A DNA stretch of 42,778 bases from Erysipelotrichaceae bacterium. Its GTDB lineage: Bacteria > Bacillota_I > Bacilli_A > Erysipelotrichales > Erysipelotrichaceae. A program made the position numbers and the translations under genes. Numbering within the stretch: the first letter of the stretch is position 1; every line of letters starts with the position of its first letter. The notes below the pieces were generated by a model. That model did no database searches. It was not told where the DNA came from and saw only the letters and a program-made list of their open reading frames with translations. Location: positions 1 through 42,778 of the forward strand of contig JAUNCS010000014.1 in NCBI GenBank assembly GCA_030526485.1, given 5' to 3'. Of this stretch, positions 2,850-42,584 are shown one piece after another.

Positions 2850-2886
2850 ACAAAAGATGAGAACTATGAAATTCTCATCTTTTGTT
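2849..2886. terminator. Bidirectional Rho-independent terminator
   Basis: A perfect 15-bp stem (AACAAAAGATGAGAA at 2849-2863 with its complement at 2872-2886) and an 8-base loop, with the T-run within and after the stem on both strands. It lies between the convergent nuclease and AAA_14 genes and serves both. Confidence 0.9.
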
Positions 2887-4217
2887 TATATAAACATCAG
2901 CATGTAATGTGGGAGAGTTATTTTTGAATCAACTCTTCCATTTCTTCCATTAATATATTTCAAAGCAATTGAAGGCTTAAATTCATCAATAAAAGAATTT
3001 AGCGATGGAGTCACAGAATTACCAGCCTTTATTTCCACAGGGATAACTTCCCCATTTTTTTCAATCAAAAATTCGATCTCATGAATATCATCAGGTTTAT
3101 AGTAATAAAGGTTATATCCCCTTTTTACCAGACACTCAGCGGCAACATTTTCGTAGATACCACCCTTGGCATTTCCTTTTATTGTGTTATTTAAAATAGC
3201 GGCCTTGGTTTCAAACCCATACATACAAGTTAATAAGCCTGTATCATTTATATACAATTTAAACTGTTCATTATTAGCATTAGCCATCAGAGGAATATAA
3301 GGCTCATGGATGTTATAGCAGGCATTAACCATAGCTGAATCCTTTAACCATTTAACACTACCACCATATTTTCTTCTGGTCTGCCCCTTTTCAACGGTTG
3401 AATACTGGAACTTTTTTAATTCCTTGGCAAGCTGTTTTGGAATAGCGTCATAACACATACGTACATATTGTTTTTCTCTGCCTACTGCATGTTTGGAAAT
3501 ATCATCCTGATATTCGGACAAGATATCATTTTGTATTCTATTAACTCTAGAAAAATCTTTATATGTCACAAAGTCGGCGACTACCTCTGGCATACCGCCA
3601 ACAACCATATATTCTCTAAATAGTCCTTCGTATTTATTGTGTATAACGTCCGGAATCTGCTCTTCGGTGTCCAAATAAGATTTTAGATTTCCAATAGCCT
3701 CATCATTATAACCGTTAGCCCACAAGAATTCTTCAAAGTCAAGGGAATACATGGTTAAATTCCTTTCATAGCCTACCGGAATTGACGAAGGTATTTCTAC
3801 ACTTTTATCATCATCTTCACCATAAGACAGACCTAATAAAGACCCTGATAAGACAACATCATAACGTAAATCTTCAGCCAAGAATTTTACAGCGGTTCTT
3901 GCATTGCCACAGCACTGAATTTCATCAAGAAAAATTAAAGTATTACCAGGTATTAGATTAATGTTTGGAATTAGACCAGACATTTTTTTATATATTTCAT
4001 CCGGTGTAAGACTGCCTTCAAAAATCATTTTTCTTTCTGGTTCTGAGAAAAAATCAATATAGATAAAAGATTTGTATTCATTTTTCCCAAATTCTTTCAA
4101 AATAAAAGACTTACCAACCTGACGAGCACCTTTTACAAACAAGCACTTTTTTAATCCGTTTTCTCTTCGTTCCTTTTTCCAACTAAGAAGTTCGTTATAA
4201 ACCTTTCTTTTAAGCAT
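2886..4217 (-). CDS. AAA_14/DUF4143 P-loop ATPase with PD-(D/E)XK-like C-terminus, copy A
   Basis: A 443-residue protein of the COG1373 type. The Walker A motif GARQVGKS is at residues 30-37, Walker B LIFLDEIQ at 94-101, and a sensor-like LSGSLLG near 123-129, followed by the family-typical DFEEFLWANG. The middle region carries the DUF4143 pattern, ending in KLYINDTGLL, which in this family includes a winged-helix-like fold. Near the C-terminus HEIEFLIE (379-386) and VEIKAG (394-399) give the E...E-x-K arrangement of PD-(D/E)XK nucleases. No function is established for the family. It is one of three paralogues in this window (see 27195 and 38404). It is a single gene, not in an operon, and is preceded by four 33-bp-periodic repeats that cover its promoter. 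Confidence 0.88.
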   Translation of the reverse strand: MLKRKVYNELLSWKKERRENGLKKCLFVKGARQVGKSFILKEFGKNEYKSFIYIDFFSEPERKMIFEGSLTPDEIYKKMSGLIPNINLIPGNTLIFLDEIQCCGNARTAVKFLAEDLRYDVVLSGSLLGLSYGEDDDKSVEIPSSIPVGYERNLTMYSLDFEEFLWANGYNDEAIGNLKSYLDTEEQIPDVIHNKYEGLFREYMVVGGMPEVVADFVTYKDFSRVNRIQNDILSEYQDDISKHAVGREKQYVRMCYDAIPKQLAKELKKFQYSTVEKGQTRRKYGGSVKWLKDSAMVNACYNIHEPYIPLMANANNEQFKLYINDTGLLTCMYGFETKAAILNNTIKGNAKGGIYENVAAECLVKRGYNLYYYKPDDIHEIEFLIEKNGEVIPVEIKAGNSVTPSLNSFIDEFKPSIALKYINGRNGRVDSKITLPHYMLMFI

Positions 4218-4246: not shown

Positions 4247-4361
4247 CATAAAATCCAGGTATCAATAAACAATAAAATACATAAAATCTAGGTATTGAAT
4301 TGCTGATTTTTGCATAAAATCAAGGTATCAAAATGCTGAAAATTGCATAAAATCCAGGTAT
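4247..4361. repeat. Four direct iterons with exact 33-bp period upstream of ATPase A
   Basis: The word CATAAAATCCAGGTAT occurs at 4247-4262, 4280-4295, 4313-4328 and 4346-4361, with single changes (CTAGG in copy 2, CAAGG in copy 3). All three steps are exactly 33 bp. On the coding strand of the ATPase the first copy sits 30 bp before the ATG, just upstream of a TATAGAT-like -10 region, so it would lie between or over the promoter elements. The fourth copy ends on the first base of the stop codon of the TauE-like gene. Units 2 and 3 also share a TGCTGA core and a TTGCAT junction. Likely protein-binding iterons. Confidence 0.9.
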
Positions 4362-13759: not shown

Positions 13760-15913
13760 ATGAAAGTTATTAAAAGAGACGGCACGATTGTCGATTATGA
13801 AGAGCAAAAAATCATAAACGCCATCTGGAAAGCTAATAATGAAGTAGATGAAAATGAACGTCTATCTTTATCACAAATCCATGACATCGTTAAATATATC
13901 GAAGGCATGGGCAAGGAAAGAATGCTTGTTGAAGACATCCAGGATATCGTAGAAACACGTATCATGGCTGAAAGAAAATATGTTTTAGCTAAGAAATATA
14001 TTAAATATCGTTATACAAGAGAATTAGTCAGAAAATCTAATACTACCGATATGACTATTAAAGAGTTAATCGATGGTACTTCAGATTACTGGAATACAGA
14101 AAATTCTAATAAGAATGCCAGAATCGTAACTACTCAGCGTGACTATATCGCTGGTATTACTTCTACTGATATCACCAGAAGATTCTTACTTCCAAAGGAT
14201 ATCGTTGAAGCTCACGATAAGGGTATTATTCACTTCCATGATGCTGACTATTTTGCACAGAACGCTTTACATAACTGTGACTTAATTGATCTGGAAGATA
14301 TGTTACAGAATGGCACAATGATCAATGGTGTCATGATTGAAAAACCACATCGTTTCTTAACCGCAGTGACTATCGCTACACAGATTATTACTGCTGTATC
14401 TTCTTCTCAATATGGTGGCTGTACTATCACAATGACACATCTGGCACCATTTGTTAGAGAATCATACAACAGACATGTACAGAAGTATCAGGAAAGAAAC
14501 TTAAGCCCAGAACAGGTTGAAAAGTTTGCGATGGAAGATACAAGAAAAGAAATCTGTGATGGTGTACAGACTTTCCAGTACCAGGTTAATTCAATGACTA
14601 CTACCAATGGTCAGGCTCCATTCCTGTCAGTAAATCTATACTTAGGTGAAACTGATGAATACAAGGAAGAATTAGCCATGATCATCGAAGAAGTATTAAG
14701 ACAGAGAATCCAGGGTATGAAGAATGAAAAAGGTGTTTATATCACACCTGCCTTCCCTAAGCTTCTATATGTCTTAGAAGAAGACAATATCCATCCAGAT
14801 TCTAAATACTTCTACTTAACAGAACTGGCTGCCAAGTGTACAGCTAAGAGACTGGTTCCTGACTACATCTCAGAAAAAGTAATGAAACAGTTAAAGGTTG
14901 ATAAGAATGGTGAAGGTCATTGCTATCCATGCATGGGCTGTCGTTCATTCTTAACTCCATATCTTGATAAAGATGGCAAGCCTAAATACTATGGCCGTTT
15001 CAACCAGGGTGTTGTAACAATTAACTTAGTAGATATCGCTTTATCTTCTCATAAGGACTTAAATGAATTCTGGCGCATCTTTGATGAAAGACTGGAATTA
15101 TGTCATAGAGCTCTTCAGGAAAGACATAAGCGTTTAGCTAATATCACTTCTGATGCTGCACCTATCTTATGGCAGAATGGCGCATTAGCTAGACTTAAGA
15201 AAGGTGAACCAGTTAAGGAATTACTATTAAATGGTTACTCTACTATTTCATTAGGTTATGCAGGTTTATATGAATGTGTTAAATACATGACTGGTAAATC
15301 TCATACTGATGAAGCAGAGGGTGAAGCATTTGGCTTAAGTGTAATGCAGAAAATGAATGACAAGTGTAATGAATGGAAACAGGCAGAACACATGGATTAT
15401 TCAGTATATGGTACACCAATTGAATCAACTACTTATAAGTTCGCTAAGGCTTTAAAAGCTCGCTTTGGTGAAATCGAAGGTATTACTGATAGAGACTACA
15501 TCACTAACTCATATCATGTACCAGTATTTGAAGAAATTGACGCGTTTGAAAAACTGCGCATTGAAGCTAAGTTCCAGAGATTATCTCCTGGTGGTGCTAT
15601 CTCTTATGTAGAAACACCTAACTTAAATAACAATATTGAAGCTATTTTACAGGTTATCACTTTCATCTATGACAACATCATGTATGCTGAATTAAATACT
15701 AAGTCAGACTATTGCCAGGAATGTGGCTATGATGGTGAAATCTTATTAGATGACAATGCTGAATGGTATTGCCCTAACTGTGGTAACAGAGATCATACAA
15801 AACTAAATGTAGCTAGAAGAACTTGTGGCTATATTGGCACAAACTTCTGGAACAAGGGAAGAACAATGGAAATCAAGGACCGTGTTCTTCATATCGATAA
15901 TAAAGATGCATAA
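13760..15913 (+). CDS. nrdD: Anaerobic (class III) ribonucleoside-triphosphate reductase
   Basis: A 717-residue enzyme that reduces ribonucleoside triphosphates to deoxy forms without oxygen. Residues 1-90 form an ATP-cone domain (MKVIKRDGTIVDY start), followed by the glycyl-radical barrel. The C-terminus has a zinc site with two CxxC pairs (CQECG and CPNCG) and the glycyl-radical motif RRTCGYIG at 686-693. The ATG at 13760 has an AAGGAG site 6 bases upstream; the TTG at 13754 does not. The gene is followed by its activating enzyme, which must install the radical. Confidence 0.96.
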   Translation: MKVIKRDGTIVDYEEQKIINAIWKANNEVDENERLSLSQIHDIVKYIEGMGKERMLVEDIQDIVETRIMAERKYVLAKKYIKYRYTRELVRKSNTTDMTIKELIDGTSDYWNTENSNKNARIVTTQRDYIAGITSTDITRRFLLPKDIVEAHDKGIIHFHDADYFAQNALHNCDLIDLEDMLQNGTMINGVMIEKPHRFLTAVTIATQIITAVSSSQYGGCTITMTHLAPFVRESYNRHVQKYQERNLSPEQVEKFAMEDTRKEICDGVQTFQYQVNSMTTTNGQAPFLSVNLYLGETDEYKEELAMIIEEVLRQRIQGMKNEKGVYITPAFPKLLYVLEEDNIHPDSKYFYLTELAAKCTAKRLVPDYISEKVMKQLKVDKNGEGHCYPCMGCRSFLTPYLDKDGKPKYYGRFNQGVVTINLVDIALSSHKDLNEFWRIFDERLELCHRALQERHKRLANITSDAAPILWQNGALARLKKGEPVKELLLNGYSTISLGYAGLYECVKYMTGKSHTDEAEGEAFGLSVMQKMNDKCNEWKQAEHMDYSVYGTPIESTTYKFAKALKARFGEIEGITDRDYITNSYHVPVFEEIDAFEKLRIEAKFQRLSPGGAISYVETPNLNNNIEAILQVITFIYDNIMYAELNTKSDYCQECGYDGEILLDDNAEWYCPNCGNRDHTKLNVARRTCGYIGTNFWNKGRTMEIKDRVLHIDNKDA

Positions 15914-15935
15914 AACCGGACAATAGTCTGGTTTT
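15912..15935 (+). terminator. Weak hairpin between nrdD and nrdG
   Basis: AAAACCGGAC (15912-15921) pairs with GTCTGGTTTT (15926-15935) around a 4-base loop, with one G-T pair. It is followed by only a short T-rich stretch. It probably lowers nrdG expression relative to nrdD or protects the nrdD message, and does not end transcription fully. Confidence 0.6.
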
Positions 15936-15953
15936 ATATTAGAGGGGGAAGAT

Positions 15954-16442
15954 ATGCGCTACTCAGCAATTAGAAAAATGGACGTCGCCAACGGCAAAGG
16001 AATCAGAGTATCCATCTTTGTACAGGGTTGTGAGTTTCACTGCAAGAACTGTTTTAACTCTGATACCTGGTCATTTTCCGGTGGTAAAGAATTTAATGAT
16101 GACATCATAAATGAAGTTCTTGAACTTGGAAGCAAGGACTATATTGCTGGTTTATCAATTCTGGGTGGTGAGCCTCTGCATCCCACAAATATTAATGGCG
16201 TTACTCTTTTGGCTAAAAAATGGAAAGAAAAGTATCCTGAAAAAAATATCTGGCTATGGACTGGTTTCTTATTTGAAGATAAAAAGAATGAAGAAATCAT
16301 GCAGTATCTGGATGTTCTGGTCGATGGTCAATATGTTGATGAACTACATGACTTTAGACTAAAGTGGAAGGGTTCAGCTAACCAAAGAGTAATCGATGTT
16401 AAGGAAACTCTTCTAAAGAACGAAATTATAATCACCGAATAA
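15954..16442 (+). CDS. nrdG: Anaerobic ribonucleotide reductase activating protein
   Basis: A 162-residue radical-SAM enzyme. The cluster motif C26-x3-C30-x2-C33 (CEFHCKNC) binds the [4Fe-4S] that cleaves S-adenosylmethionine and generates the glycyl radical on NrdD. LSILGGEPLHP is the usual GGEP SAM-binding segment. The start has an AGAGGGGGA ribosome site. It lies 40 bp after nrdD. Confidence 0.95.
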   Translation: MRYSAIRKMDVANGKGIRVSIFVQGCEFHCKNCFNSDTWSFSGGKEFNDDIINEVLELGSKDYIAGLSILGGEPLHPTNINGVTLLAKKWKEKYPEKNIWLWTGFLFEDKKNEEIMQYLDVLVDGQYVDELHDFRLKWKGSANQRVIDVKETLLKNEIIITE

Positions 16443-21556: not shown

Positions 21557-22969
21557 ATGGGAAAATACGAAAGTCTTGCGAAAGACATCATCAAAGAAGT
21601 TGGCGGCCAAGAAAACATTAATGCCGTAACTCACTGTATTACACGCTTACGTTTCACTTTAAAAGATGAAGCAAAGGCAAATGACGAAGCTTTAAAAGCT
21701 ATGGGCGATGTTGTTACTGTTGTTCACTCAGGTGGTCAGTATCAGGTTGTTATCGGTCAGAAAGTAAACCTTGTTTACGCTGATGTATGCGAAGTACTAG
21801 GTATCACTGACGCAAAAGCTGCTGAAGCTGAAGAAGCTCCTACTGAAAAGAAGGGTTTTGTTGCTACACTTATCGACATTATTTCTTCTTGTTTCGCTCC
21901 AATCCTTGGACCAATGGTTGCTTGTGGTCTAATGAAGGGTATCAACGCTCTATTAGTATTCTTATTAGGTGCTACTTATTCTGCTAGCGGTACTTATCTT
22001 GTATTAAACGCTATTGGCGATGCTATCTTCTACTTCATGCCGGTTATGTTAGGTTACTCTTCAAGCAAGAAATTCAACCTTAACCCAGTTGTTGGTATGT
22101 TAATTGGTGCAGCACTATGTATGCCTGCATTACAGTCTTCATCACTATCAGCTAAAGAAGTATTAGGTTCAGCTGGTATGCTTGGTAATTATTACATCAC
22201 TTTCTTAAAGATTCCTGTAATCGCTACTTCTTACACTAGCTCAGTAATTCCTGTAGTTGTTGTATGTGCATTTGCAGGTATGATTCAGAAATACGCTAAG
22301 AAGTTTGTTCCAGAACTAGTTCAGAGCTTCTTGGTTCCATTCATCGTAATGGTTATTTCTATTCCGGTTGGTTTAATTGTAATTGGACCAGTTATCCAGT
22401 TATTCACTACATTATTATCAAATGGTTTCACTGCTTTATTTAACTTCTCACCAGTACTAACAGGTATCGTACTTGGTTTCTTCTGGCAGGTATTAATCAT
22501 CTTCGGTCTTCACTGGTCAGCTGTACCAGTAGCTATGATCAATATTGCTGCATTTGGTTACGATACACTTCTGATGGTTACTCACCCTACTGCCTTTGCT
22601 CAGTTCGGTGCACTACTTGGTATGTACGTTAAGATGAAAGATAAGAAGAAAAAAGCTCAGGCTGTTCCAGCTATGATTTCTGCAGCATTCGGTGTTACAG
22701 AGCCATCAATCTACGGTTTCACTCTAGCTGCGAAGACTCCATTCATCGCATCTTTAGTGGCTGGCGCTGTCGGCAATATGTTAATGTGTGTATTAGGCGC
22801 TAAACGTTACATCATGGGTGCTGGTGGTATTGTAGGCCTAGTAAACTACGTTGCTCCAGATGGCAGTATGGCTGGTGTTGTTGTTGCTGTTATCGCAATG
22901 CTTGCGGCTATCGCTGTTGGTTTCGGTCTAACAATGTTACTTTGGAAAGACGATTCTAAAGAAGCTTAA
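21557..22969 (+). CDS. PTS beta-glucoside-type transporter, IIBC
   Basis: A 470-residue protein. Residues 1-85 are the IIB domain with the phosphorylated Cys27 in THCITRLRF; a linker follows and then the IIC membrane domain of about 10 segments, including the conserved TEPSIYGF. It takes up a glucoside and phosphorylates it at C6. Classic BglP proteins carry a C-terminal IIA domain; here IIA is encoded separately two genes downstream. The start has an AGAGAG site. It is in operon with the enoate-reductase-like gene. Confidence 0.93.
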   Translation: MGKYESLAKDIIKEVGGQENINAVTHCITRLRFTLKDEAKANDEALKAMGDVVTVVHSGGQYQVVIGQKVNLVYADVCEVLGITDAKAAEAEEAPTEKKGFVATLIDIISSCFAPILGPMVACGLMKGINALLVFLLGATYSASGTYLVLNAIGDAIFYFMPVMLGYSSSKKFNLNPVVGMLIGAALCMPALQSSSLSAKEVLGSAGMLGNYYITFLKIPVIATSYTSSVIPVVVVCAFAGMIQKYAKKFVPELVQSFLVPFIVMVISIPVGLIVIGPVIQLFTTLLSNGFTALFNFSPVLTGIVLGFFWQVLIIFGLHWSAVPVAMINIAAFGYDTLLMVTHPTAFAQFGALLGMYVKMKDKKKKAQAVPAMISAAFGVTEPSIYGFTLAAKTPFIASLVAGAVGNMLMCVLGAKRYIMGAGGIVGLVNYVAPDGSMAGVVVAVIAMLAAIAVGFGLTMLLWKDDSKEA

Positions 22970-22978
22970 TTTTACTCA

Positions 22979-23006
22979 AAACCCCAAACCAGCTGTTTGG
23001 GGTTTG
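22979..23006 (+). terminator. Hairpin between PTS IIBC and glucosidase genes
   Basis: An 11-bp perfect stem, AAACCCCAAAC (22979-22989) with its complement (22995-23005) and a 5-base loop. The T-run after it is poor, so it is probably a partial terminator or message-processing block. A TATAAT lies just beyond, at 23008-23013, but without a clear -35. Confidence 0.75.
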
Positions 23007-23012
23007 TTATAA

Positions 23013-24497
<1,485 letters not shown>

Positions 24498-24498
24498 T

Positions 24499-25002
24499 AT
24501 GGGTATCTTTAATAATTTATTTGGCAAAAAAGAAGAAAAAACAATTGAAGCAGTAGCTGATAATGCAGTACTTGCTGTATGTGATGGTGAATTCATTCCT
24601 GCAGAAAAGATTGCTGATCCAGTATTTGCTGAAAACATGATGGGTCAGACAGTGGCGATTGAACCAACAAACAGTACTATTACTTCACCAGTAAACGGTA
24701 CACTTGAAGTGGTATTTCCTACAGGTCATGCTTTTGCCGTAAGAGCAAATGATGGTACAGGTTATCTTGTGCATATCGGTATTGATACAGTCTCAATGAA
24801 TGGCGAAGGCTTTAAGGCCTTAAAGAAACAGGGCGATACAGTTAAGGCTGGTGAAACCGTTGTTGAAGTAGACTTCAATAAAGTAGAAGCAGCTAATCAT
24901 CCTAAGACTACAATGATTATCATAACTGAACCAGTTGAAGACAAGACTTACAGTTATATCGATTTCGGTACAGTTAAAGCTAATCAGATCATTTCTAAAT
25001 AA
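24499..25002 (+). CDS. PTS glucose-family IIA component
   Basis: A 167-residue IIA-Glc-type protein. The phosphorylated His is His92 in GYLVHIGIDT, and the supporting His77 is in PTGHAFAV. An N-terminal tail resembles the membrane-binding helix of IIA-Glc (MGIFNNLFGKK). It passes phosphate from HPr to the IIB domain of the transporter in the same operon. It begins one base after the GH1 stop codon. Confidence 0.93.
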   Translation: MGIFNNLFGKKEEKTIEAVADNAVLAVCDGEFIPAEKIADPVFAENMMGQTVAIEPTNSTITSPVNGTLEVVFPTGHAFAVRANDGTGYLVHIGIDTVSMNGEGFKALKKQGDTVKAGETVVEVDFNKVEAANHPKTTMIIITEPVEDKTYSYIDFGTVKANQIISK

Positions 25003-27194: not shown

Positions 27195-28502
27195 CTATAT
27201 GAAAGAGATTGCATACAAAGGCAAGGTAAGTATTCCTTCATCACTTACACCGATGTTGCCATCAATAAATTTATAAGCCAGTTTAATATCGTTCTTATTC
27301 TTAAGTAGACTGCTAAGAGAACTTGCCTTACTGTTGCCACTCTTGATTTCAATCGGAACAACTTCTCCATCCTTTTGGATAATCACATCAATTTCCTTCT
27401 TGTTTGTTTCATTCTTATAGAAATACAGTGAATAGCCTTTTTTGTGTAAAGCATCAGCGATAGCACATTCATATATTCCACCCTTTGTATTTCCACTTAG
27501 TGTATTTTCGACGATGTGCTTTTTCAAAGAAAAATCCTTCATCGCCATTAAAAGTGATAAATCAGTGGTGTAAGCCCTAAAGAAATCATCCTTTGCATAA
27601 TCATCCAAATCAAAGGTAATATTCGTAACCAGCCTGCTAAGATGAATGATATCTGCTCTTAAAAGCCACTCAATACTTGAATAGTATTTTTGGGCTCTAC
27701 CACCATGTTCTACTTCCTTATACTGGAACTTATGATTTTCTTTATCTAATAACTGTCTTGCCAAAGTCAGATAACATTTCTCTGCTTTTACTTTTTCCTC
27801 AGCATTAGCGTAATGAGCAATATCATACAAATAACCTTGAAGCAGATTCTTTTGAACAGTATCTACTTCTCTAAAATCTTTAGTATCAAGATATTTTTGA
27901 ACTGCTTCTGGCATACCGCCAACTGCAATATACTGTCTGAAATACATCATCATCTGTGTATTGACCGCTTCAGGCAAAGCCTTTTTATCTTCAATATATT
28001 GTCTTACACCGCTAATCATTTCTTCACCGATGCCATTAGCCCACAGAAATTCTTCAAAATCTACGCCCTGCATCTTGTAGTAATCTACATAGCCCACTGG
28101 ATAAGAGGAAGCTCTTTTATAATCAATCCCCAACAGAGAACCAGATGCTATCACATCAAAGTGGTTATCAATAGCCCAGAACTTTAATGAAGTAATCGCT
28201 TCTTCACATTCCTGAATTTCATCTAAAAAGATTAGTGTTTTACCAGGAATGATCTTCTTGTCGGGAAAACGAAAACGCATTGCCATCAGCATGGTTTCAA
28301 CTGTTAAATCACCACTGAATATTTCTTTTGCAGAAGGACTTTCTTTAAAATTGATTTCTAATAGTTCTTCATAATTTTCATTGGCAAAATTTTCAACAGT
28401 AAAAGTTTTACCAGTTTGTCTGGCACCCTGTATCACAAGGCACTTCTTATGTTTTTCACGCAGCCATTTTTTAATATCTGCAGTAGCTTTTCTTTTAATC
28501 AT
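27195..28502 (-). CDS. AAA_14/DUF4143 P-loop ATPase with PD-(D/E)XK-like C-terminus, copy B
   Basis: A 435-residue paralogue of the proteins at 2886 and 38404. Walker A is GARQTGKT at residues 26-33, Walker B LIFLDEIQ is near 90-97, SGSLLGI follows, then DFEEFLWANG. The C-terminal nuclease-like pair is KEIDVII (Asp 372) and IEIKSG (Glu 385, Lys 387). There is an AGAGGG site before the ATG. Its own TATAAT box (28522-28527) is overlapped upstream by the first of three 32-bp-periodic repeats. It is monocistronic, and the family function is unknown. Confidence 0.88.
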   Translation of the reverse strand: MIKRKATADIKKWLREKHKKCLVIQGARQTGKTFTVENFANENYEELLEINFKESPSAKEIFSGDLTVETMLMAMRFRFPDKKIIPGKTLIFLDEIQECEEAITSLKFWAIDNHFDVIASGSLLGIDYKRASSYPVGYVDYYKMQGVDFEEFLWANGIGEEMISGVRQYIEDKKALPEAVNTQMMMYFRQYIAVGGMPEAVQKYLDTKDFREVDTVQKNLLQGYLYDIAHYANAEEKVKAEKCYLTLARQLLDKENHKFQYKEVEHGGRAQKYYSSIEWLLRADIIHLSRLVTNITFDLDDYAKDDFFRAYTTDLSLLMAMKDFSLKKHIVENTLSGNTKGGIYECAIADALHKKGYSLYFYKNETNKKEIDVIIQKDGEVVPIEIKSGNSKASSLSSLLKNKNDIKLAYKFIDGNIGVSDEGILTLPLYAISFI

Positions 28503-28532
28503 AAATATTCCCTCTAGTTATATTATAAGGCT

Positions 28533-28611
28533 CATCAACATTTTAGAAAGAAAAAATGTTGTTTCATCAACATTTTGGACATCTATTATGTTGATACATC
28601 AACATTTTGGA
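28533..28611. repeat. Three direct iterons with exact 32-bp period upstream of ATPase B
   Basis: CATCAACATTTTGGA or a near copy occurs at 28533, 28565 and 28597, with two exact 32-bp steps (the first copy ends TTAGA in place of TTGGA). Each of the second and third copies is also faced by an inverted half, AAAATGTTG at 28553-28561 and ATGTTGAT near 28589, making a small dyad. The first copy lies 31 bp before the ATG, between the promoter -35 area and its TATAAT. The third ends 5 bp from the stop codon of the next gene. Confidence 0.9.
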
Positions 28612-28615
28612 ATTT

Positions 28616-30239: not shown

Positions 30240-30240
<1 letters not shown>
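29407..30240 (-). CDS. HAD-superfamily Cof-type sugar phosphatase
   Basis: A 277-residue protein with the HAD motif I DLDGTL (nucleophile Asp 7, Asp 9), motif II ATGRT and motif IV FGDGENDCEML, plus the Cof-type cap. These enzymes remove phosphate from sugar phosphates or flavin-type phosphates. Its ATG overlaps the GH1 stop by one base, so it is translated with the glucosidase. A role in dephosphorylating excess sugar phosphate is plausible but unproven. Confidence 0.87.
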
Positions 30241-32218
<1,978 letters not shown>

Positions 32219-32246
32219 ACATATCTCCTTGTCGTCACAGAATTAT

Positions 32247-33608
32247 TTATTTTTCTTCACCTACACCTAGTACCATTACGATCGCAAAGGCAACTAAAGC
32301 TGATACCGCCATACCCAGGCATACACTCCAGAAACCATCTGTCATAAATACCGGTGTTGATAAGATACAAGAGTTTACATAAGCGGTTGCACGACCACCA
32401 AACATACCAACAATAGCGCCACCAATAGCACCACCAGCTACAGTAGCAAGCATAGCTGTCTTAAACTTCAGGAATACACCGTAAATACCAGGTTCAGTAA
32501 TACCGATGAAAGATGAAATAGCTGTAGAAGCACCAATCTGCTTATTTTCAGAATTCTTAGCCTTTAGCCATACACCGAAACATGCGCCAAATAAAGCAAG
32601 AGTACCCATAGTGTTCATAGGTAATAACCAGTCCTTACCATATTCAGCAAGATTGCCAATTGCGATAGCACCAAGTGATAAGTGCATACCAGTCATAACT
32701 ACAAACAATCTAGTACCACCGATAATTGCGCCCGCAACAAGTGGAGATAAGCCATATAAGAAGTTGAATAAACCAACTAATAATTTAGAGATATACATCG
32801 CTAATGGGCCGATTACCACTAGTGTTAATGGTGTCATGATTAATAAAACCAAAGTAGGAACAAATACAATCTGTAAATTCTTTGGAATAATTTTCTTAAC
32901 AGCTCTATATACATAAGAAAGCACTAATACAGTTAAGATAATTGGAATTGTGCTACCAAAGTATCTAGGGAATGGGATAGGTAAGCCTAAGAATTTTAGA
33001 GCTTCAGCACCAGAAGTATTACCTGCCGTCATGGTTGGATACAGTAATACACCGGCTAAAGAAATAGCTAATGCAGCATCAGTCTTAAATCTCTTAGAAG
33101 CTGACCAAGCTACCAGGAATGGTAGGAAATAGAATGCACAATCACCCGCCATTGTAAGAACTGTAATTAGAGAAGATGAAGAGCTTACGCCACAATATGA
33201 AGTTAAAATTGTGATCAAACCCTTAATCATACCAGCACCAGCTAAAGCCGGAATTACTGGAAGCAGGATTGCAGACATAGTCTGGAAAATAGTGTTAATG
33301 CTGAATTTGGCTTTTTCGCCATCAAGGTTTTCATTAACTTTAGCTTCAACATTGATATCTGCTGCTTTACAGAATACATCATATAGCTCATCAACATCCT
33401 GACCGATGATAATCTGTAACTGGTTGCCATTCCATTGTGTACCAGCAACACCATCGATCTTTTCAAGATTTTCAATATCAACTAGACCCTTATCTTTAAC
33501 GTCTAATCTAAGTCTTGTCATACAGTGATATGCACGGTTAACGTTGTCCTTACCGCTAACGCTAGCTAAGATATCAGATGACATTTGTTCATAATTCTTT
33601 TTTGCCAT
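32247..33608 (-). CDS. PTS beta-glucoside-type transporter, IIBC
   Basis: A 453-residue protein with IIB at the N-terminus (phosphorylated Cys29 in YHCMTRLRLD), then a IIC domain of about 10 membrane segments, with TEPGIYGVF late in the chain. As in the first operon, the IIA is a separate protein. It follows licT by 68 bp. Confidence 0.93.
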   Translation of the reverse strand: MAKKNYEQMSSDILASVSGKDNVNRAYHCMTRLRLDVKDKGLVDIENLEKIDGVAGTQWNGNQLQIIIGQDVDELYDVFCKAADINVEAKVNENLDGEKAKFSINTIFQTMSAILLPVIPALAGAGMIKGLITILTSYCGVSSSSSLITVLTMAGDCAFYFLPFLVAWSASKRFKTDAALAISLAGVLLYPTMTAGNTSGAEALKFLGLPIPFPRYFGSTIPIILTVLVLSYVYRAVKKIIPKNLQIVFVPTLVLLIMTPLTLVVIGPLAMYISKLLVGLFNFLYGLSPLVAGAIIGGTRLFVVMTGMHLSLGAIAIGNLAEYGKDWLLPMNTMGTLALFGACFGVWLKAKNSENKQIGASTAISSFIGITEPGIYGVFLKFKTAMLATVAGGAIGGAIVGMFGGRATAYVNSCILSTPVFMTDGFWSVCLGMAVSALVAFAIVMVLGVGEEK

Positions 33609-38403: not shown

Positions 38404-39759
38404 TTATTGTGAACTATAGTTTGTTTCTCTTAATTTCATCCATTCCTTTAAAAGGAAAGTACAGAAATACGGGAATGTATAAATGTTTTTTTCAAAGCCA
38501 ATATTATTAAGTGAAAGTTTAACCCCCCATTTTATCAATGGATACAAATCGCTTGTTATTAACTGTCGCATGGATTTTGATCTGCCGTCGGTAGCTTTTA
38601 CTTCTATTGGTACGACACCATTACTGCTTCTGATAAAAAAATCCTGTTCAAGTGTTGAATCATCTCTTCTGTAATAATACAAAGGATAGCCACTTTTAAG
38701 CAATTCTTCAGCCACGATATTTTCACATATTGCACCGTTATATGTGTTGAAGTTTTTGCTGGTTCTTAAGTCTTCTTGTGCTTCATCATCCAGCATGGAA
38801 ATCAGAAGTCCCGTATCAGCCATATACAACTTAAACTTTGAATCATCGCAATTTCCTTTTAGCGGAAGTTCTGGGAAAGACAAACAATAACACTTCTTGG
38901 CAATACCCGCATCCTGAAGCCATTCCACGCATGACGCGTGAGTACTAAATCTAGCGCCATGGCCAAGTTTGGTAAACTGGAACTTTTTATTATCTTTGGC
39001 AAGCTGAAAAGGTATCGAATCAAAAACTCTGGTGACTTTTGTTTGGTCTGTACCGCTAGTGTATTTTCTAATATCTTCTCTATATGCAGATACTATTTGT
39101 CTTTGACAATCCAGAGTACCTGAGAAAGATCCGCTTTCCACATACATTGATACAACTTTTGGCATTCCTCCAATTATTGTATGTTCCATAAACAAATCTT
39201 TTAGGGTCTGAAAAGTTGTGTCACCAAAAGGTTTACTTTCAATCATATGATTAAGCAAAACATTTTTCAAAGAATCATCATAACCCTTAGCCCAAAGAAA
39301 TTCTTCGAAATCCAAAGAATACATTTCGTATTCAGTTCTATAGCCTACACTAATGCTTTCAATTTGCTTATAATTAATACCCAATAGAGACCCGCTACAA
39401 ATCACGTCAAATCTTTCATCAATAGCAAAAAACTTTAGTGCTGTCATGATGTCCGGATAAGCCTGCATTTCATCAAAAAAGAGGAGCGTCGAACTTTCTT
39501 TGAAAGAAATGTTTGTATCTAACATAGTAATGTTTTTGATGATATCATCAACGCTATACCCATCAGAAAGAATAGTTCTGAATTTTGGCATCTCAATAAA
39601 ATTTATCTCAATTACATTTTCATAGTTTTTGTATGCAAAACGTCTTATTGATTCTGTCTTACCTATTTGTCTTGCCCCTTTCACTACAAGTGGTAGTCTT
39701 TTAGGATCGTTTTTCCATTTTTCAAGATATTCATCTATTTTTCTTCTAAGATACGCCAT
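38404..39759 (-). CDS. AAA_14/DUF4143 P-loop ATPase with PD-(D/E)XK-like C-terminus, copy C
   Basis: A 451-residue paralogue of the proteins at 2886 and 27195. Walker A is GARQIGKT (28-35), Walker B LLFFDEMQ near residues 92-99, then CSGSLLGINY and DFEEFLWAKG. The DUF4143 region ends KLYMADTGLL, and the C-terminal pair LEQDFF (Asp 373) and IEVKAT (Glu 386, Lys 388) gives the nuclease-like motif. The ATG has an AGAGAGG site. A TTGTGT/TAAAAT promoter runs into the first of three 32-bp-periodic repeats. Monocistronic; family function unknown. Confidence 0.88.
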   Translation of the reverse strand: MAYLRRKIDEYLEKWKNDPKRLPLVVKGARQIGKTESIRRFAYKNYENVIEINFIEMPKFRTILSDGYSVDDIIKNITMLDTNISFKESSTLLFFDEMQAYPDIMTALKFFAIDERFDVICSGSLLGINYKQIESISVGYRTEYEMYSLDFEEFLWAKGYDDSLKNVLLNHMIESKPFGDTTFQTLKDLFMEHTIIGGMPKVVSMYVESGSFSGTLDCQRQIVSAYREDIRKYTSGTDQTKVTRVFDSIPFQLAKDNKKFQFTKLGHGARFSTHASCVEWLQDAGIAKKCYCLSFPELPLKGNCDDSKFKLYMADTGLLISMLDDEAQEDLRTSKNFNTYNGAICENIVAEELLKSGYPLYYYRRDDSTLEQDFFIRSSNGVVPIEVKATDGRSKSMRQLITSDLYPLIKWGVKLSLNNIGFEKNIYTFPYFCTFLLKEWMKLRETNYSSQ

Positions 39760-39806
39760 AATTCACCTCTCTTTATCTATATTTTAAGGCATCATTTTTA
39801 CTCTAC

Positions 39807-39880
39807 ACAATTTTTTGGCCCATTTTTTTGTGTATTTTACAATTTTTTGGGTGAATTTTTTGTGTTTTTTACAATTTTCC
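39807..39880. repeat. Three direct iterons with exact 32-bp period upstream of ATPase C
   Basis: ACAATTTTTTGG occurs at 39807-39818 and 39839-39850, and a partial copy, ACAATTTTCC, at 39871-39880. Both steps are 32 bp. A second word, TTTTTTGTGT, recurs in the gaps at 39824-39833 and 39856-39865, also 32 bp apart. The first copy lies 48 bp before the ATG and overlaps the likely -35 (TTGTGT on the coding strand). These words do not resemble those of ATPases A or B. Confidence 0.85.
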
Positions 39881-39900
39881 TAGCGAACTTTAGTTTTTAG

Positions 39901-40573: not shown

Positions 40574-40763
40574 AATAAAACCTCAACTTTTCAGTTGAGG
40601 CATATTGTTAGATATTATTCGAACTCGATTGTATTATTTTCTAAATGGTCTAAAAAGCTCCCTTTTTTAGCACTTAATTGCAGGTGCAATTCCACCAAAA
40701 CAGGGCTTTTTCTCATGCGTCTACAAAAAATGTTTTCAAAAATGTTTTCACGGAAATGGTTTT
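40574..40763 (-). ncRNA. Candidate small RNA through repeat copy 1, ending in a terminator
   Basis: On the minus strand the 8-bp stem CCTCAACT / AGTTGAGG (40600-40581) with a GAAA loop is followed by TTTTATT, a good terminator, yet no coding gene lies upstream of it on that strand. The segment above it is the 142-bp repeat copy, which contains a further hairpin (40650-40670). A transcript through the repeat would explain the terminator. No promoter has been pinned down, so this is a hypothesis. Confidence 0.35.
40622..40763. repeat. About 140-bp direct repeat, left copy
   Basis: Strongly similar to 42445-42584. The first 29 bases differ at one position (AACTCGATTGTATTATTTT shared), and the last part is nearly identical, including CAATTCCACCAAAACAG, CATGCGTCTAC and a tandem AAATGTTTTCA pair. 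The middle is more divergent. The two copies bracket the gene at 40979-42343. Confidence 0.9.
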
Positions 40764-40978: not shown

Positions 40979-42343
40979 GTGGATATCAAAAGCCTGATTG
41001 GCGAAACAACGGAATATGACAAGAAATTAAGACTTGAGGAAAAGAAACCGAAGAGCTGGTGCAAGACTGTCAGTGCCTTTGCAAACTCATTTGGCGGTTT
41101 TCTTGTCTTTGGCATTTCTGATGATGACGAAATCATCGGGCTTAAAGATGCTGCCAAGGATGCTGAAAAGATCAGCGAAATCATCAAGACCAGGCTTGAT
41201 CCAGTACCTGAATTCTCTATTGAATTCCATAAGGAAGATAACAAGGATCTGATCCTTCTTCATGTTTTTAAGGGTGAGGAAACGCCTTACTACTATTCTG
41301 GCGATGGCTCGCTTGAAGCCTATGTAAGAATGGGAAACGAGAGTGTCAAGGCTACTTCCATCGAATTGAAACGCCTTGTAATGCGTGGAAAGAACTCCAC
41401 TTTCGATTCGCTTGTTACCGATTATGACTTTGATGATTACTCTTTCTCCAAGTTGAAGGAAAGATACTTCCAATGGACTGGCAAAAGCTTTGACGATAAA
41501 CTGTATGAATCATTTGGCATTGTCAATAGCAACGGCAAACTGACAAACGCCGGAGCTCTATTGGCTGATGAAACCCCTGTTTATCAAAATAGATTATTCT
41601 GCACTAGATGGAATGGCTTGACCAAAGCTGGAGGCTTGATTGATGCACTGGATAGTGCAGAATACAAAGGAGGCTTGATTTCCCTTCTTCGTGATGGCGA
41701 ATCCTTTATCAAAAGGAACACCAGAGTGATGTGGAGGAAAACACCTTTCTCAAGAATCGAAATGCCGGAATATGTTTTCCAAAGCGCATCCGAGGCTCTT
41801 GTCAATGCGCTGATTCATCGTGACTATACGGTAGTTGGCAGCGAAGTCCATATCGACATATTCGATGATCGAATGGAGATATATTCTCCAGGTGGAATGG
41901 TCAACGGAAGACTAATTCAGGAGTTAGACATCAGGCATGTCCCTTCGGAAAGAAGAAACCCAATATTGGCCGATATCTTCAATCGTCTTGGTCTTATGGA
42001 AAGACAAGGCAGCGGACTTAGCAAGATTGTCGAAGGTTACCAGTTTGAGGAGAATTATACAGAAGCAAAAAGACCAGTCTTCTACTCTGACAGAACTCAG
42101 TTCATAGTTGAGATGCCTAACTTAAATTATGATTCATCAAATAGTGGCACCCAAGATGGCACCCAAGATGATATTAATAACAGAATCATCAGCCTGATCA
42201 GAGCAAACAACAAAATAAGCGCAAAAGATATGGCAAATGAATTAGGCATCAGTTTAAGAACTGTGAGAAGAAAGCTTAGTGAATTAGACTGTATTAAATA
42301 TGTTGGTAGAGGATATAGTGGCCATTGGGAAATAGAGGAATAA
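40979..42343 (+). CDS. AlbA_2/HATPase_c_4 (RecG-like) DNA-binding transcriptional regulator
   Basis: A 454-residue protein. Residues about 1-120 are the AlbA_2 (Schlafen AAA_4) domain with the marker FANSFGGFLVFGISDDDEIIG. The middle resembles the HATPase_c_4 domain (SEALVNALIHRDY near residue 272), and the C-terminus is a helix-turn-helix (AKDMANELGISLRTVRRKL). Such proteins are often found in accessory regions and phage-defence or toxin-antitoxin neighbourhoods. The GTG start has an AAGGA site 6 bases upstream. Codon use is visibly richer in G and C than neighbouring genes. It is bracketed by direct repeats, so recent arrival is likely. Confidence 0.85.
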   Translation: MDIKSLIGETTEYDKKLRLEEKKPKSWCKTVSAFANSFGGFLVFGISDDDEIIGLKDAAKDAEKISEIIKTRLDPVPEFSIEFHKEDNKDLILLHVFKGEETPYYYSGDGSLEAYVRMGNESVKATSIELKRLVMRGKNSTFDSLVTDYDFDDYSFSKLKERYFQWTGKSFDDKLYESFGIVNSNGKLTNAGALLADETPVYQNRLFCTRWNGLTKAGGLIDALDSAEYKGGLISLLRDGESFIKRNTRVMWRKTPFSRIEMPEYVFQSASEALVNALIHRDYTVVGSEVHIDIFDDRMEIYSPGGMVNGRLIQELDIRHVPSERRNPILADIFNRLGLMERQGSGLSKIVEGYQFEENYTEAKRPVFYSDRTQFIVEMPNLNYDSSNSGTQDGTQDDINNRIISLIRANNKISAKDMANELGISLRTVRRKLSELDCIKYVGRGYSGHWEIEE

Positions 42344-42444: not shown

Positions 42445-42584
42445 AACTCGATTGTATTATTTTCCAAATGGTCAAAAATGTGCCCTTTTTGGCCATATTC
42501 ACAGGTACAATTCCACCAAAACAGTTCTTTTTCCCATGCGTCTACGAAAAATGTTTTCAAAAATGTTTTCACGGAGTTGGTTTT
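42445..42584. repeat. About 140-bp direct repeat, right copy
   Basis: Second copy of the repeat at 40622-40763, in the same orientation and about 1.82 kb away. A further shortened echo of its AGGTGCAAT word lies just before it (near 42418). It has an open antisense frame that the left copy lacks, so the repeat is best seen as noncoding. Confidence 0.9.

What the first reader, a model, noticed from the sequence alone, without database searches (positions are those of the whole stretch)
4247..4361. Four 33-bp-periodic iterons cover the promoter of an AAA_14/DUF4143 ATPase gene
The 16-base word CATAAAATCCAGGTAT recurs four times with start points 4247, 4280, 4313 and 4346, exactly 33 bp apart. 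This is about three helical turns, so bound proteins would sit nearly on the same face of the DNA. The copy nearest the gene is in the promoter region and the farthest reaches the neighbour's stop codon. The spacers differ while the words and period are kept, which implies selection for protein spacing.
Basis: seen in the sequence. Interest (0 to 1): 0.8.

Follow-up and report, generated by a model that had tools for sequence, protein, structure and literature searches.

The report
Self-addressed operator arrays of nuclease ATPases
A very common but uncharacterised family of candidate phage-defence ATPase-nucleases carries, directly over each gene's own promoter, a private array of regularly spaced DNA words that differs from gene to gene and changes with the protein, which suggests that each protein recognises and switches its own gene.

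Summary
In detail: four 16-bp words at exact 33-bp steps lie at 4247-4361 (two identical, two with one change at the same base), far beyond chance. They are not a local curiosity. The window holds three AAA_14-DUF4143 genes and each has its own array, period 32 or 33, with a different word. Of 80 homologues from many phyla, 73 pass a 99% shuffle threshold, and all 73 have a period of 31-33; among 274 control genes one does. Period follows the protein clade (about 33, 23 or 40 bp; another clade is enriched in long palindromes). Words are conserved, spacers are not, and word similarity rises with protein identity. In the five best-populated word families the last copy sits at a nearly fixed distance from the -10 box, on or beside the core promoter. 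Array plus gene appears to travel as a unit. The protein is a STAND-type ATPase with a winged helix and a PD-(D/E)XK-like domain (PADLOC: PDC-S01, called the fourth most common predicted defence system). Best reading: private autoregulatory operators bound by the encoded ATPase. Binding and its sign were not tested.

The parts
2886..4217 (-). Gene A: AAA_14-DUF4143 ATPase, 443 aa (STAND-type AAA+, winged helix, PD-(D/E)XK-like domain); PADLOC family PDC-S01
   Evidence: Pfam AAA_14 E 6e-21 and DUF4143 E 1e-31; PDC-S01 E 2.5e-143; model pLDDT 93
4247..4262 (-). A iteron nearest the gene, in the core promoter region
4280..4295 (-). A iteron 2 (one mismatch)
4313..4328 (-). A iteron 3 (one mismatch)
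4346..4361 (-). A iteron farthest from the gene; overlaps the last base of the tauE stop codon
4241..4246 (-). Candidate -10 box TATCAT abutting the last A iteron, the offset also seen in L083, L087 and L072 (TATATA just downstream is an alternative)
   Evidence: consensus match only
27195..28502 (-). Gene B: second AAA_14-DUF4143 ATPase, 435 aa
28533..28548 (-). B iteron nearest the gene (TTCTAAAATGTTGATG), 5 nt upstream of a TATAAT at 28522-28527
28565..28580 (-). B iteron 2, 32 bp on
28597..28612 (-). B iteron 3, 32 bp on
38404..39759 (-). Gene C: third AAA_14-DUF4143 ATPase, 451 aa
39807..39820 (-). C iteron nearest the gene; its TTGTG coincides with a candidate -35 (TTGTGT), 18 nt or so before TAAAAT at 39781-39786
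   Evidence: promoter by consensus only
39839..39852 (-). C iteron 2, 32 bp on
39871..39884 (-). C iteron 3 (degenerate), 32 bp on

Best explanation
The repeats are a private operator array. The AAA_14-DUF4143 ATPase encoded next to them binds the phased words as an oligomer, probably through its winged helix, covers the core promoter of its own gene and holds transcription down (negative autoregulation). Each paralogue has its own word, so the paralogues are largely insulated from each other, and array plus gene forms one portable, self-controlled unit. Shown: the arrays, their period, single polarity in four of five word families, promoter position, gene-to-gene word differences, covariation with the protein, and joint inheritance. 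Inferred: that the product is the binder, that the effect is repression, and that nucleotide state or an infection signal releases it.
For: Arrays in 73 of 80 homologues, all at period 31-33, against 1 of 274 control genes above threshold at period 31-34. Nine of 12 full-length paralogues in this genome have arrays, mostly with different words. Adjacent words 77-93% identical per column, spacers 36-46%. Period follows the protein tree: 24 changes against 62 for shuffled labels. Word similarity at background below 45% protein identity and strong above 60%. Last copy at a nearly fixed distance from the -10 within word families: 28 nt in 5/5; 12 nt in 3/4; 22-24 nt in nine genes including a gammaproteobacterial plasmid copy; 7-8 or 38-40 nt, one period apart. 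Word families F1, F2, F4 and F5 occur only on the coding strand. Array-plus-gene similarity without flanks. A-word unique in the genome. Fold includes a winged helix and resembles Orc1/Cdc6 among others.
Against: No binding or expression data exist here. STAND winged helices often do not bind DNA (general knowledge). The residue-level covariation scan gave only modest, scattered signals (highest around 286-320, 371-390 and 401-415; none in the helical domain) and is confounded by relatedness. In several A-like homologues a complete TTGACA lies downstream of the array, which would also fit activation. Words are not always private: C and L006 both read CAAAAAATTGT, and the B word has five one-mismatch sites elsewhere against one for its control. 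The 80 homologues were picked for closeness to A.
Confidence: 0.7

Rival explanations
1. The ATPase binds the array but activates its own promoter (positive feedback), with the last site next to or replacing the -35 box.
For: In A-like homologues the array ends just upstream of TTGACA and one period from the -10; single polarity.
Against: In other families the last word contains the -35-like hexamer or abuts the -10, where a bound protein should block polymerase.
Confidence: 0.12
2. The array is chiefly the recognition end of a mobile single-gene element: the ATPase-nuclease moves the unit from array to stop codon, and promoter overlap is secondary.
For: Similarity between homologues usually covers only array to stop codon; 13 copies here, 23-32 matches in three archaeal genomes; COG1373 is listed among recently transferred genes (PMC10782964); neighbours' orthologues in the genus lack the gene.
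Against: No repeats at both ends and no target-site duplication were seen in the few boundaries inspected; relatives were too diverged for empty-site analysis. Fixed distance to the -10 is not expected of a transposition end.
Confidence: 0.1
3. A host regulator, not the ATPase, binds the arrays.
For: Binder identity was not tested.
Against: Words differ between paralogues in one genome, and similar words are kept with similar proteins across genera and phyla.
Confidence: 0.06
4. The repeats are replication or partition iterons, as beside plasmid Rep or Par genes.
For: Iterons upstream of a DNA-binding ATPase gene; similarity to the Orc1/Cdc6 fold.
Against: Genes A-C lie among pyrimidine-synthesis and other housekeeping-type genes; 13 family members in a 1.95-Mb genome; no replication-initiator domain matched.
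Confidence: 0.02

Closest known systems
PDC-S01 (PADLOC phage-defence candidate, single gene; COG1373)
   Same: Same protein family by HMM; ATPase fused to a PD-(D/E)XK-type domain
   Different: I found no description of arrays at its promoters in the searched open-access literature; experimental validation is described as pending for most such candidates in PMC12988326
STAND NTPases: SSO1545, PABY2304, CED-4, plant NLRs, Avs
   Same: Predicted fold of residues 1 to about 333, Z 13-15; invariant GGxP motif resembling the STAND GxP motif
   Different: No room for a C-terminal repeat sensor domain (443 aa); nuclease-like domain at the C terminus; a promoter array. IniR of mycobacteria is a STAND-like ATPase shown to bind a promoter (PMC5760070), but with a predicted C-terminal LuxR-like domain and as an activator of another operon
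RepA of repABC replicons
   Same: Several paralogous ATPases in one cell, each specifically autorepressing its own operon (PMC4492784)
   Different: ParA-type ATPase, palindromic operators, plasmid partition; here STAND fold, direct-repeat arrays, chromosomal loci
Iteron-controlled plasmid Rep genes
   Same: Direct repeats of fixed spacing upstream of the gene for their presumed binder (general knowledge)
   Different: No replication-initiator domain; many chromosomal copies; operator position on the core promoter

Membership tests
PDC-S01 | Matches the PADLOC PDC-S01 profile over its length | tested here: met
   E 2.5e-143, 1.2e-135 and 1.4e-151 for A, B and C, nearly full length
PDC-S01 | Antiviral activity | not testable with these tools
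   Experiment needed; described as pending for most PDCs in PMC12988326
STAND NTPase | Nucleotide-binding core with Walker A and B and a GxP-like motif | tested here: met
   Invariant GxRxxGK, DExQ and GGxP in 57 homologues
STAND NTPase | NB-ARC-like fold with helical domain and winged helix | tested here: met
   PABY2304 Z 15.4, SSO1545 Z 14.6, CED-4 Z 13.7; predicted model, pLDDT 93
STAND NTPase | C-terminal superstructure-forming repeats as sensor | tested here: not met
   443 aa, taken up by ATPase, helical domain, winged helix and DUF4143; no repeat family matched
PD-(D/E)XK nuclease | Conserved E / (D,E) / ExK motif in an alpha-beta fold | tested here: met
   Invariant E356, E395, K397 and near-invariant E380, A numbering; alpha-beta model
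PD-(D/E)XK nuclease | Structural match to known PD-(D/E)XK enzymes | tested here: inconclusive
   Best Foldseek hits DdmD and UPF0102, with McrC, Can2 and Hjc lower, E 0.017 or weaker
Iteron plasmid replicon | Replication-initiator protein domain | tested here: not met
   No such Pfam match for A, B or C
Autoregulatory operator | Sites overlap or abut the gene's own core promoter | tested here: met
   Near-constant offset to a predicted -10 within five word families; promoters are consensus predictions
Autoregulatory operator | Product binds the sites and alters transcription | not testable with these tools
   Needs binding and reporter assays

The most novel reading that the evidence does not exclude
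A large family of NLR-like ATPase-nucleases spread through bacteria and archaea uses its own promoter array as both switch and guard: the protein stays parked and inactive on its private phased sites, and disturbance of that complex by invading DNA or takeover of transcription releases both expression and nuclease activity. The period of the array reports the geometry of the subfamily's oligomer on DNA.
Probability: 0.2. Interest if true: 0.93.

Novelty: new variant of a known kind. Interest (0 to 1): 0.8.

Why it matters
PDC-S01 has been called the fourth most common predicted defence system in prokaryotes, with no known mechanism. The arrays give many matched pairs of protein and presumed binding site, so DNA binding, specificity, oligomer geometry and autoregulation can be tested directly, and cognate and non-cognate pairs from one genome serve as built-in controls. 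They would also show how a potentially harmful gene can arrive in a new host with its own control element.

Tried and rejected
Phage-sequence sensor: one common word occurs in 16 viral stretches, one match each and no array, about what chance would give by my rough estimate. Recent tandem duplication: spacers are at background identity. RNA element: where the last copy lies before the -10 the array is not transcribed from that promoter, and no inverted repeat was found around A's array. Locating the DNA-reading residues by covariation: scattered, confounded signal, not used as proof. Empty-site comparison: neighbours' orthologues too diverged (45-66% identity). Archaeal TATA distance: the script stopped early and is not used. 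Solved structures by sequence: no close relative. Thermus TT_P0211, a DUF4143 gene whose RNA rose 6.6-fold with plasmid and Ago present, has no direct array above shuffles but a short palindrome before the ATG (I matched it to the record by position, not by locus tag).

Full report
Observation. On the + strand CATAAAATCCAGGTAT stands at 4247 and 4346, with one-base variants at 4280 and 4313, all at 33-bp steps. 46 of 48 bases match at period 33; 2000 shuffles reach at most 31 over all periods 20-42. The genome has no other exact match to CATAAAATCNAGGTAT; two-mismatch sites (7) are no more than in the reversed-pattern control (9). On the coding strand the word reads ATACCTGGATTTTATG. The array fills the space between the stop codon of a TauE-type transporter gene and the ATPase promoter.

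The same thing twice more in the window. Genes B (27195-28502) and C (38404-39759) are also AAA_14-DUF4143. B has TTC(C/T)AAAATGTTGATG three times at 32-bp steps, the middle copy beginning GTCC (28533, 28565, 28597). C has ACAATTTTTTGG at 39807, 39839 and, degenerate, 39871. The words differ, the design is the same.

Genome. The 1.95-Mb genome holds 13 DUF4143 genes, 12 of them full length. Nine of the 12 show direct repeats at 32-33 bp above or near the top of shuffles, mostly with distinct words. L008 and L010 have two copies at wider spacing and L011 has an inverted repeat. C and L006 share CAAAAAATTGT, so privacy is not absolute.

Homologues. Eighty relatives (74-37% identity to A) came from Firmicutes, Bacteroidota, Spirochaetes, Verrucomicrobia, Kiritimatiellae and archaea. 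Seventy-three exceed the 99% shuffle threshold: 51 at period 33, 21 at 32, one at 31. Among 274 neighbouring genes with family members removed, 19 exceed it and one has a period of 31-34. This set is biased to A's clade, but a wider set of 191 genes shows that period follows the protein: one clade at 32-33, one at 23/46, a few at 38-41. Archaeal members, some in genomes with 23-32 matches, include arrays of several near-perfect 23-bp copies. Copies of A-like genes on plasmids of Glaesserella and Fusobacterium, and on a faecal phage contig, also have arrays. The clade without direct repeats is enriched in long inverted repeats: 11 of 29 above the 98% shuffle level.

Anatomy. Of 119 well-resolved arrays in the 33-bp clade, 82 have three copies, 23 four, 7 five and 7 two; spacings are 33 (164), 32 (92), 31 (6) and 34 (6). 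Per-column identity of adjacent copies is 77-93% in the 18-bp word and 36-46% in the spacer. The word was chosen as the best-matching stretch, so its own value is somewhat inflated; the spacer value near background is the informative one. Four word families (F1, F2, F4, F5) occur only on the coding strand; the fifth is near-palindromic and ambiguous.

Promoter position. Within word families the distance from the last word to the best -10 is nearly constant: AAAACTTGCA 28 nt in five of five; GGAATTTTGTGA 12 nt in three of four; TTGAAAAAGT 22-24 nt in nine genes, where TTGAAA itself would be the -35; the A-like family 38-40 nt (with a TTGACA-like box between) or 7-8 nt. The last two values differ by about one period, so array and promoter share a phase. 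Promoters are consensus predictions; members of a family are related, so these are not independent events, and for some F2 and Bacteroidota genes the program chose implausible boxes.

Protein and word evolve together. Over 119 genes, word similarity is at background below 45% protein identity, rises from there and is strong above 60%. In 72-97% identical pairs from different genomes DNA similarity generally begins 100-170 bp before the ATG, at the array, and ends at the stop codon; a few pairs extend further or lack upstream similarity. Orthologues of the tauE and nitroreductase neighbours in the genus have no ATPase beside them in the stretches held. This fits horizontal spread of array plus gene.

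Protein. The AlphaFold2 model (pLDDT 93) shows an AAA+ core, helical domain, winged helix (about 247-322) and a C-terminal alpha-beta domain. The first 333 residues match STAND ATPases (SSO1545, PABY2304, CED-4, plant NLRs) at Z 13-15. The C-terminal domain keeps E356, E380, E395 and K397 and gives weak matches mostly to PD-(D/E)XK nucleases. PADLOC files the family as PDC-S01; PMC12988326 calls it the fourth most common defence across prokaryotes, with experimental validation pending for most such candidates.

Interpretation. Many different words in one genome, kept with the matching protein across hosts and fixed to the core promoter, are best explained if the product binds its own promoter region. 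Repression is the simpler sign where the site overlaps the -35/-10; activation remains possible for A-like promoters. What releases the protein, and whether the nuclease-like domain acts in defence, is unknown.

Literature limits. Only open-access full texts were searched; DUF4143 appears in one paper, COG1373 in seven and PDC-S01 in three, and none of the passages read mentions the arrays. Subscription papers and preprints were not searchable, so novelty is provisional.

Noticed in passing
window 40640-40760 and 42450-42580: Similar direct repeats of over 100 bp (ending ...CATGCGTCTAC.AAAAATGTTTTCAAAAATGTTTTCACGG) flank a Schlafen/AlbA_2-type gene (40979-42343), which may be an inserted unit.
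   Followed up: no
L244-L263 (PF01637 genes of several genomes): Upstream regions of the related STAND family ATPase_2 often look rich in inverted repeats (e.g. TGTCAAATCATATTTTGACAAATTATAATTTGACA in L256), possibly private palindromic operators.
   Followed up: no
archaeal genomes G197, G201, G204: 23, 29 and 32 DUF4143 matches in genomes of 1.4-1.5 Mb, an extreme expansion.
   Followed up: partly
window 21557-25002 and 30240-33608: Two sets of genes that look like PTS transporter, glucosidase and PTS component, a few kb apart, suggesting duplicated sugar-uptake clusters.
   Followed up: no
L307, upstream of the ATP-binding protein gene at 14854-16074 (-), Thermus thermophilus pTT27: A DUF4143-type gene has TGAATGA-CTA-TCATTCA just before its ATG; TT_P0211, probably this gene, rose 6.6-fold in cells with plasmid and Argonaute (PMC4406477).
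   Followed up: partly
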